A stretch of 44,943 bases of DNA, taken from contig NZ_JAFAGT010000075.1 of assembly GCF_019237615.1 (NCBI RefSeq), forward strand, positions 1-44,943, written 5' to 3'. Below the pieces are notes generated by a model that had not been told where the DNA came from, did no database searches, and saw only the letters and a list, made by a program, of their open reading frames with translations. The translations under genes were made by a program, and so were the position numbers. Positions 36,684 through 39,054 of the stretch are shown one piece after another. The stretch is from Roseateles sp. (GTDB lineage Bacteria; Pseudomonadota; Gammaproteobacteria; Burkholderiales; Burkholderiaceae_C). How positions within the stretch are numbered: the stretch's first letter is position 1; each line of letters opens with the position of its first letter.

Positions 36684-37913
36684 TCAGCTTCGGTAGTCGG
36701 CGTTGATGCTGACGTAGTCGTGGCTGAGATCGCATGTCCAGACGGTGGCGCTGGCGCCGCCGCGGTTCAGGCCCACGCGGATGGTGATCTCGCTCTGCTT
36801 CATGACGCGCTGGCCGTCCGCCTCGCTGTACTCGGGCCGGCGGCCGCCGCGCGTGACGACGTGAACGTCGTCCAGGTGCAGATCGATCAGGCCCTGGTCC
36901 AGGTCGGCGATGCCGGCATAGCCCACGGCGGCCAGGATGCGGCCCAGGTTGGGGTCACTGGCGAAGAATGCCGTCTTGACCAGCGGCGAGTGGGCGATGG
37001 CGTAGGCCGCCAGCTTGCACTCGGCCTCGTCACGGCCGCCCTCGACGGTGATGGTGATGAACTTGGTCGCGCCCTCGCCGTCGCGCACGATGGCCTGGGC
37101 CAGTTCCTGGGCCAGCGACACCAGCGCATCGCGCAACGTCTTGGCATCGGCGCTGTCCAGGGACGTGATCTCGGCATGCGTCGCCTGGCGGCTGGCGATC
37201 AGCATGAAGCAGTCGTTGGTGGACGTGTCACCGTCGATGGTGATGCGGTTGAAGGACGCGTCGGCAGCCTCCTTCACCAGCGGCTGCAGCAGGGCCGGCG
37301 CGATGTTGGCGTCGGTCGCGACGAAACCCAGCATCGTCGCCATATTGGGGCGGATCATGCCGGCCCCCTTGGAGATGCCAGACAGCGTGACGGGCGCGCC
37401 GCCGATCTCGATGCGGCGCGACGCGGCCTTGGGCAGCGTGTCCGTCGTCATGATGCCCGCGGCGGCCTCGGCCCAGTTGTCGGCCTTCAGCGCGGCCAGC
37501 GCCGCAGGCAGACCGGCGTTGATGCGGTCCACCGGCAGCGTCTCCATGATGACGCCGGTGGAGAACGGCAGCACCTGCTCGGGCGCGCAGCCGATCAGGT
37601 CGGCCAGGGCCTGGCAGGTCTTGCGCGCGCGGGCCAGGCCGTCGGCGCCGGTGCCGGCGTTGGCGTTGCCGGTGTTGATCAGCAGCGCGCGGATGGCCGA
37701 GCCGCCGGCCAGATGCTCGCGGCAGACCTGCACCGGGGCGGCGCAGAAGCGGTTGGTCGTGAACACGCCGGCGACGGCCGCGCCCTCGTCCAGGGCGATG
37801 ACGCTGAGGTCGCGCCGGTTGGCCTTGCGCACGCCGGCCATGGTCACGCCGAGGCGCACGCCCGGCACGGGCAACAGGGTGGCGGGATCGGGAGCGGAGA
37901 GATTGACGGGCAT
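36684..37913 (-). CDS. argJ: Bifunctional ornithine acetyltransferase/N-acetylglutamate synthase
   Basis: The 409-residue enzyme transfers the acetyl group of N-acetylornithine to glutamate in arginine synthesis. It is made as one chain that cuts itself before the Thr of the ATML motif in [19 protein letters not shown] (near residue 190). Other signatures are [30 protein letters not shown] and the C-terminal [15 protein letters not shown]. In related bacteria argJ is close to secA; here PEP-CTERM genes and an intron lie between them. Confidence 0.95.
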
Positions 37914-37986
37914 GGCGCGCGGGCTCGAGTTGAATGCAGCGCGCGGATTGTAGGAACCCGGCGAGACGGGTCGGCGCGCGATCAGG

Positions 37987-38322
37987 ATGGGGGGAGCCAA
38001 TGTCGGTCCGCCCCTCCCACGCCACCGGGCATGCGGGTCCGCACCAGGCGGTTCGAGCGCTTGAGGTCAGGAGAGTCGGGGCAAGCCCAGTCGGTCGAGT
38101 CAGGCGGTGGTAGGCACGTCGTTGAGAGCCTTGCGGTCATTGGCCCGCTCGCCCTGCTCGGCAGCGCCTTCTATGCGGTTCTTGTTCATCGGCTCGCGAT
38201 TCACGCTCCACGCTTCCTCCCCACATCCGGTCGCCCTCGTGCAGTTGCGCTTCACTTCGCTCGCTGTGACCAGCTCGCGGGAGGACTTGCACCTCCAGGA
38301 TGTGCGCCCATGCTGGGCGCAC
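37987..38322 (-). mobile_element. ORF-less group IIC intron (or deletion derivative)
   Basis: On the minus strand the sequence begins GTGCGCCCAGCATGGGCGCA, the group II 5' GUGYG start folded in the first hairpin, followed by GGAGGTGCAAGTCCTCC, both standard for the start of domain I. Near the 3' end is a domain V-like hairpin (about 38056-38022): GAACCGCC, GTGCG, a GACC loop, CGCAT and GGTGGCGTGGGAG. It is then closed by a domain VI-like stem GGGAG...CTCCC ending CAT at 37987. The length is only 336 nt, too short for a maturase, and no reverse transcriptase is encoded. It sits directly after the terminator of the PEP-CTERM gene, the insertion site of class C introns. Splicing ability is unknown; the exact ends are inferred. 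Confidence 0.75.
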
Positions 38323-38324
38323 CC

Positions 38325-38351
38325 AAAAACAAAGGCTCCCGAAGGAGCCTT
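38325..38351 (-). terminator. Intrinsic terminator of the PEP-CTERM operon
   Basis: On the minus strand AAGGCTCC, loop TTCG and GGAGCCTT (38332-38351) are followed by TGTTTTTG. This is a perfect 8-bp stem with a stable tetraloop and a T-tract, 29 bases past the stop of the second PEP-CTERM gene. The group IIC intron begins three bases after the T-tract. Confidence 0.9.
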
Positions 38352-38379: not shown

Positions 38380-39054
38380 TCAGTGCACGCGGCGGCGACG
38401 CACCACCAGGCCGACAGCGCCGAGGCCGGCCAGCAGCAGCGCATAGGTCTCGGGCTCCGGAACCGGGTTGGCGACAACGAAGTCCTGGTACGTGCCGTTG
38501 ACCAGCTTAGTCAGCTGGTATTGGGCCGGGCCGCTGTAGTTGCTTGCGGCAAGCAGATAGGAGTTGGCCAGCGCGGCGAAGGATGCATCCTGCGCTTGCG
38601 TGCTGGTCTCGCTCAGATACCAGAACTGGAAGCTGCCGCCGGACAGGTCGAACTTCGCGGCGGGCGAGGTTTCTTCCATGATCTTCCAGACCGCGACCTG
38701 GAAGGCGGCCTTCTGCTCAGCGGTGGACACCGAGACGTAGCTGCTGGAGAACAGCGACTGCAGCAGGCCTTCCTGCTGAATCGTGAAACTGCCCTTGGTG
38801 TAGCTCAGGAAACCGGCCGAGCTTGGTGCATGCCCCTGGGCCAGCTCGACGCAGAAGGCCTCGAAGCTGCTGCCCTGGGTATTGACGAAGGTCATCGCGC
38901 CGGTCAGGTATCCGTTCTGTGTGCCGGAGGTCGTGGCGATGATGCCATCGGTCGACTCGTAGCGCACATCCCAGCTATCTGCATAAGCCGCGCCGCTGAG
39001 CGTCAGCGCGAGCATCGGTGCGATCAGCCAGTTCGTCTTCTTGCTTGTCATCAT
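38380..39054 (-). CDS. PEP-CTERM sorting domain exported protein
   Basis: The 224-residue protein has a signal peptide (WLIAPMLALTLSGAAYA, cut near 25), a thioester-domain-like middle (SFEAFCVELAQGHAPSSAGF, about 63-82; AAFQVAVWKIMEETS, about 115-129), and the tail VPEPETYALLLAGLGAVGLV followed by VRRRR. The CVEL plus QVAVWKIM pair is typical of PEP-CTERM proteins with a Cys-Gln thioester-type domain, so it may bind a surface covalently. It follows the other PEP-CTERM gene by 29 bases and is ended by a clear intrinsic terminator. Confidence 0.87.
   Translation of the reverse strand: MMTSKKTNWLIAPMLALTLSGAAYADSWDVRYESTDGIIATTSGTQNGYLTGAMTFVNTQGSSFEAFCVELAQGHAPSSAGFLSYTKGSFTIQQEGLLQSLFSSSYVSVSTAEQKAAFQVAVWKIMEETSPAAKFDLSGGSFQFWYLSETSTQAQDASFAALANSYLLAASNYSGPAQYQLTKLVNGTYQDFVVANPVPEPETYALLLAGLGAVGLVVRRRRVH

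What the first reader, a model, noticed from the sequence alone, without database searches (positions are those of the whole stretch)
37987..38322. A 336-nt group IIC intron without a maturase gene behind a terminator
The minus strand starts GTGCG, carries domain I-type GGAGGTGCAAGTCCTCC, and ends with a domain V-like hairpin and a domain VI stem closing at CAT. It has no reverse-transcriptase frame. Class C introns insert directly after intrinsic terminators, and this one begins three bases after the T-tract of the PEP-CTERM terminator. Small ORF-less group IIC introns are rare; if it still splices in trans it would be of interest.
Basis: partly seen in the sequence, partly recalled or inferred. 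Interest (0 to 1): 0.75.

Follow-up and report, generated by a model that had tools for sequence, protein, structure and literature searches.

The report
Gutted group IIC intron behind terminator
A mobile self-splicing intron landed behind a gene's transcription terminator and later lost its middle, including its maturase gene and part of its RNA core, so it is most likely a fossil rather than a working miniature intron.

Summary

It is not a complete ORF-less intron. One internal deletion, within the 11-nt stretch 38134-38124 that both sides resemble, joins the EBS1 hairpin of domain I to the last codons of the maturase gene. The 3' end of domain I (about 55-65 nt), domains II and III and nearly all of the maturase are gone. 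Domains V and VI remain (own covariance model: 76.1 bits, E 2.6e-18), with one mismatch in domain V. The maturase tail carries a nonsense codon.

The host genome holds a related full-length intron with an intact maturase (C62). Of 33 both-ended copies examined (a biased sample, window included), 14 have a shortened or lost ORF. No other copy with this junction was found; 14 of 18 congeners show the terminator without an intron.

Best reading: a dead insertion, ordinary for this family.

The parts
38332..38351 (-). intrinsic terminator hairpin (AAGGCTCC-TTCG-GGAGCCTT) of the upstream PEP-CTERM gene; the insertion target
   Evidence: fold (-16.6 kcal/mol for the 45-nt exon); a like hairpin, without intron, upstream of argJ in 14 congeners (read by eye)
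38323..38331 (-). 5' exon: T-rich tail and IBS1 (TTGG at 38326-38323)
38135..38322 (-). intron 5' end and domain I up to the EBS1 hairpin
   Evidence: 86% identical to positions 1-197 of a full-length relative; 95% to own copy C29; RF02001
38140..38143 (-). putative EBS1 (CCAA): four pairs with IBS1 TTGG in a register shifted by one; 3 of 5 in the register of the relatives
38124..38134 (-). deletion junction, within GCAAGGCTCTC; relatives have GCAAAGCTCTC in domain I (L118, L110) and GCAAAGCCCTC in the maturase tail (L110, L117), so the exact point is open
38067..38126 (-). remnant of the last codons of the maturase gene (LNDVPTTA*LDRLGLPRLS*), with an in-frame nonsense codon
   Evidence: local alignment score to the ORF tail 26 against 15 at most in 500 shuffles
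38022..38051 (-). domain V hairpin with one U.C mismatch (column pair 12-31)
37984..38018 (-). domain VI stem; bulged A kept
37981..37983 (-). intron 3' end (GAT)

Best explanation
This is a relic of a group IIC (class C) retro-intron. A full-length copy, related to C29 of the same genome, reverse-spliced directly behind the PEP-CTERM terminator upstream of argJ, guided by EBS1-IBS1 pairing and the terminator hairpin (inferred from the family pattern). One internal deletion, probably across a short imperfect repeat, then removed the 3' end of domain I, domains II and III and all but the last codons of the maturase (shown by homology; that the deletion followed the insertion is inferred). Domains V and VI and both ends remain, but the ribozyme core is incomplete, so it should neither splice nor move, with or without the maturase of C62 in trans (inferred). 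As it lies between genes behind a terminator, nothing needs it to splice (inferred).
For: Two homologous blocks only: positions 1-197 and 1750-1850 of the 1883-nt intron of G016. The stretch after the junction aligns with the maturase tail (score 26; shuffles mean 8, maximum 15) and not with domain I 3' (7; mean 6.6) or domains II-III (7; mean 7.4), and GTARAT, seen in domain I 3' of many copies, is absent. The tail reads LNDVPTTA*LDRLGLPRLS*, against LNGVLTIAWFDRLGLPPLS* (L109) and LNRVLTIAWFDRLGLPRLS* (L110). Rfam domain I score 32.7, against 88.9-114.2 for 12 of the 14 RF02001 hits in 20 related loci; the other two score 46.7 and 39.9. No excess folding (z -0.20; one control relative z -4.30). 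The own genome holds other damaged copies (C90 lacks its 5' end, C29 most of the ORF). 14 of 33 both-ended copies, window included, have a shortened or lost ORF.
Against: Both intron ends, the bulged A and 19 of 20 domain V/VI pairs survive. The 5' part lies on a short end branch (0.014), so there is little sign of point decay there. The domain V mismatch position is also unpaired at separate sites in the own genome (C90 and C68, C.C) and in L165 (C.C) and L137 (U.C), so it need not be lethal. No RNA or splicing data exist.
Confidence: 0.9

Rival explanations
1. A functional small ORF-less group IIC intron, spliced and moved in trans by the C62 maturase.
For: Intact maturase in C62 (470 aa, RVT_1 and GIIM), intact ends, terminator site, domains V and VI. 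ORF-less IIC relatives do lie at different sites.
Against: Domain I 3' end, domains II and III are missing. No second copy of this form seen: apart from the window itself no alignment (20 genomes) or (399 genomes, best two candidates each) covers both blocks (some end or start within about ten bases of the junction, where the two sides resemble each other), and an exact 30-mer scan of genome contigs found 0.
Confidence: 0.04
2. A bipartite intron: the missing domains are supplied by RNA of another copy (trans-splicing as in organelles).
For: Trans-splicing group II introns exist in organelles (PMC4424553, passages); C62 in the same genome carries the missing parts.
Against: No interrupted gene here needs splicing; I saw no split partner, but did not search for one; no second copy was found.
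Confidence: 0.02
3. The deleted intron is kept because it insulates or separates argJ from the upstream gene.
For: It lies between the terminator and the argJ start; G016 carries an independent insertion at the same terminator.
Against: 14 of 18 congeners have the terminator without any intron, so it is not required.
Confidence: 0.04

Closest known systems
Class C / group IIC bacterial introns (those that insert behind intrinsic terminators)
   Same: 5' consensus, terminator target, short EBS1, domains V and VI; the C62 relative encodes an RT-maturase in which Pfam showed only RVT_1 and GIIM
   Different: maturase gene, domain I 3' end, domains II and III deleted
T. [quoted passage not shown] PMC2882425, passage)
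   Same: internal deletion from domain I into domain IV
   Different: another kind of group II intron and host (recalled); here the deletion reaches the end of the maturase gene
T. elongatus ORF-less TeI3 introns (PMC2882425, passages)
   Same: remnant of the maturase C-terminus, related maturase elsewhere in the genome
   Different: those share one deletion in 17 copies and mobility assays were run on some; this one is single and lost ribozyme domains

Membership tests
group IIC (class C) intron | 5' consensus GUNYGCCNRGCAUGG | tested here: met
   window 38322-38308 GTGCGCCCAGCATGG; consensus from PMC4028801
group IIC (class C) intron | insertion directly after an intrinsic terminator | tested here: met
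   a hairpin stands next to the insertion in 24 of 24 copies with a recognised 5' end, window included (read by eye; no random control; the tail of L071 has no T-run)
group IIC (class C) intron | EBS1 complementary to IBS1 | tested here: inconclusive
   family: 101 of 120 positions paired, 68.6 +/- 4.3 when exons are shuffled, 0 of 10000 as high; window itself 3 of 5, or 4 contiguous in a register shifted by one
group IIC (class C) intron | EBS3-IBS3 pairing (class C uses EBS1 and EBS3; PMC3522654, passage) | not tested
   EBS3 was not located; that it lay in the deleted end of domain I is recalled
group IIC (class C) intron | domains V and VI with bulged A | tested here: met
   76.1 bits; 19 of 20 pairs
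group IIC (class C) intron | complete domain I, domains II and III | tested here: not met
group IIC (class C) intron | maturase without endonuclease domain (in a relative) | tested here: met
   C62: RVT_1 and GIIM are the only Pfam families at E up to 0.001; the window copy has only the tail
functional ORF-less intron mobilised in trans | complete ribozyme | tested here: not met
functional ORF-less intron mobilised in trans | same ORF-less form at more than one site | tested here: not met
   none found, within the limits of those searches
functional ORF-less intron mobilised in trans | splicing in vivo or in vitro | not testable with these tools
   needs RNA

The most novel reading that the evidence does not exclude
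The gutted copy still reacts because another copy's RNA supplies the end of domain I and domains II and III, which would make it a bacterial bipartite group IIC intron, fed by a family that keeps shedding ORF-less derivatives.
Probability: 0.03. Interest if true: 0.75.

Novelty: new member of a known kind. Interest (0 to 1): 0.27.

Why it matters
[quoted passage not shown] It matters as a caution that an ORF-less intron must be checked for its ribozyme domains before trans-splicing is proposed. It also led to relatives that do look like non-autonomous IIC introns, on which trans-mobilisation by a class C maturase could be tested directly.

Tried and rejected
Rejected: 'the bases after the junction are foreign filler'; comparison with relatives showed that they are the maturase tail. 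Corrected on re-check: I first set the junction overlap at three bases (CTC); one search shows an 11-base stretch that fits both sides with one or two mismatches, so the point is open. Rejected: 'the G016 intron at the same argJ terminator is the full-length ortholog of this insertion'. It sits two bases off, has another EBS1, and groups with L118 (97/86), while the window groups with C29 (98/91). Inconclusive: whether the copy is a mosaic. Its 5' part is nearest to C29 (95%), but its 3' part is nearer to copies of other species (93% over 90 nt with L118, against 86% over 88 nt with C29). Led nowhere: an exact scan for the junction (0), Rfam for domain V (no hit), a pair count on the Rfam domain I alignment (33 of 48 pairs in the window, 41 of 48 in L112; not used, because the window's 3' strand is maturase sequence forced onto the model), and a search of 399 genomes of the order for the ORF-less domain IV (0; no positive control among them). 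Literature searches: (one search found no paper holding all four of its terms); of the papers I saw listings, abstract starts and passages, none whole. The 2008 survey of ORF-less introns (PMC2525955) is not held, so I cannot say whether the ORF-less IIC lineage is in print.

Full report
What is there. On the minus strand, window 38322-37981 (342 nt) is a group IIC-type intron copy. It begins GTGCGCCCAGCATGG, fitting the class C consensus quoted in PMC4028801 (passages). Rfam finds group-II-D1D4-3 at 32.7 bits, just over the gathering score of 32. The upstream gene 38380-39054 carries a PEP-CTERM motif and the downstream gene 36684-37913 is argJ.

Domains V and VI. Rfam gave no domain V/VI hit here (E up to 5) nor in 20 related loci at gathering threshold. 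I therefore built a model from 21 copies of other genomes, leaving out the own-genome copies. Their 20 pairs hold in 99.3% of cells, with two pairs changed on both sides; for two of the five measures (pairs with a change on both sides, further pair types) the shuffles do as well as the data (351/500 and 332/500), for the other three 0/500. The model hits the window at 76.1 bits, E 2.6e-18, next best 14.3 bits. Own copies score 101.7 (C62), 98.1 (C29), 83 (C68), 82.1 (C90), 68.6 (C11) and 52.8 (C5); a search of the whole genome adds one in C13 at 44.1 bits, 8 in all with the window. The window has a U.C mismatch at a pair that 20 of 21 relatives form. The exception, L137, has the same mismatch; own C90 and C68, and L165, have C.C there, so it is not proof of death.

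What is missing. Against the full-length intron of G016 (1883 nt) only positions 1-197 and 1750-1850 match by BLAST. The stretch between is the maturase C-terminus: it aligns with the ORF tail (score 26, shuffles at most 15) but not with domain I 3' or domains II-III, and it reads LNDVPTTA*LDRLGLPRLS*. The junction lies within GCAAGGCTCTC at 38134-38124: relatives have GCAAAGCTCTC there in domain I (L118, L110), and two (L110, L117) have GCAAAGCCCTC in the maturase tail; seven other tails looked at do not have it whole. In G016 the Rfam domain I model ends at intron position 253 (L122 522-693, intron from 441), so about 55 to 65 nt of domain I are lost; domains II and III, which I place between there and the ORF, are absent too. 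The 342-nt RNA folds like its shuffles (z -0.20, 39 of 100 at least as good).

Insertion. For 24 copies with a recognised 5' start and EBS1 motif (24 of the 34 rows; 10 rows without a start were dropped), the 45-nt exon folds into a hairpin next to the insertion in all 24, read by eye and without a random control. EBS1 pairs with the copy's own IBS1 at 101 of 120 positions, against 68.6 +/- 4.3 when exons are shuffled among copies (0 of 10000 as high). The window is among the poorest fits (3 of 5; two others have 3 and one has 2), or has 4 contiguous pairs if its EBS1 is read one base earlier.

Empty sites. ArgJ was found in 19 of 20 genomes of the genus, own included. Of the 18 others, 14 show the terminator without an intron, 1 (G016) carries a full-length intron at the same terminator, and 3 do not show this terminator in the stretch printed (read by eye). 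The G016 insertion looks independent: offset by two bases, another EBS1, another branch.

Relatives. Matches were found in 7 of 20 genus genomes and 46 of 399 family genomes (at most two candidates scored in each), own genome included in both. The own genome has one intact maturase (C62, 404.3 bits), plus a partial one at a contig start (C5, 148.6) and a remnant (C90, 31). Among 33 both-ended copies in the loci mapped, window included, 19 have an ORF of 420 aa or more and 14 do not; one of the 14 still has 392 aa. The sample is biased: several loci were fetched because they looked short. Copies with one end only, or cut by contig edges, are not in the 33.

Five ORF-less relatives (L179 Cupriavidus campinensis plasmid, L180 and L185 Rhizobium plasmids, L148 of G369, L158 of G277) share 71-88% identity over about 640-750 nt in the five pairs compared. 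In L180/L185 and L179/L148 the homology begins and ends at, or within three bases of, the intron; in L180/L179, L180/L148 and L158/L148 it overruns by 11, 7 and 16 bases on the 5' side. Beyond that the flanks did not align. L179, L180, L148 and L158 match the first 332-390 and the last 58-92 positions of the G016 intron, which I read as domains I-III and V-VI; L185 was compared with L180 only. All five share a domain IV without RT that forms 66 predicted pairs, 22 with changes on both sides (shuffled mean 10.0, 0 of 500 as high; slid controls at most 6). The structure was predicted from these same five sequences, which favours it, and its covariation energy term was not favourable (+0.6). L180 folds well beyond shuffles (z -4.30, 20 shuffles). 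A maturase over the family cut-off was found in 2 of the 5 genomes or records searched (G369 and the L180 plasmid); G277 had none, and for the three plasmids only the plasmid record was searched. This suggests a non-autonomous IIC intron lineage. The domain I tree does not group L148 with L158, so domain IV or domain I may have been exchanged. I could not establish whether it is published.

Verdict. The finding is a correctly spotted group IIC intron copy, but a gutted one. Trans-splicing is not supported.

Noticed in passing
L179:601-1248, L180:601-1229, L185:464-1086, L148:1934-2606(-), L158:406-1120(-): ORF-less IIC introns with apparently complete domains I-III and V-VI and a shared structured domain IV without RT, with differing flanks: a likely non-autonomous, trans-mobilised lineage.
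   Followed up: partly
L182:604-1086 (E. coli plasmid NZ_CP122941.1); L186, L187: Another ORF-less relative in E. coli: at least 80% of it in 33 of 5426 genomes. The three copies that I opened lie at one site, between a phage holin family gene and a serine acetyltransferase gene.
   Followed up: partly
L122:441-2323 (G016): A full-length intron with maturase at the same argJ terminator in a congener. Its 3' end lies 8 nt upstream of a TTAGAAT motif also seen before argJ in some other congeners, so intron DNA may form the upstream part of the argJ promoter.
   Followed up: partly
L109:487-744 (G002): An even smaller gutted copy (258 nt): domain I cut after about 81 nt and joined to the maturase tail.
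   Followed up: partly
L027, L109, L110, L124, L127, L165, L168; window 38134-38124: Deletion junctions where the two homologous blocks overlap by 7 to 17 nt, suggesting short direct repeats; the window's 11-nt stretch is alike. 3' breakpoints seem to cluster near reference positions 1450, 1560 and 1695.
   Followed up: no
window 38057-37981, own C90 and C68: Three own-genome copies at different sites have the sixth pair of domain V broken.
   Followed up: no
own genome C5, C32, C68 (contig ends): Contigs break inside intron copies, so the number of full-length introns and maturases in the genome may be undercounted.
   Followed up: no
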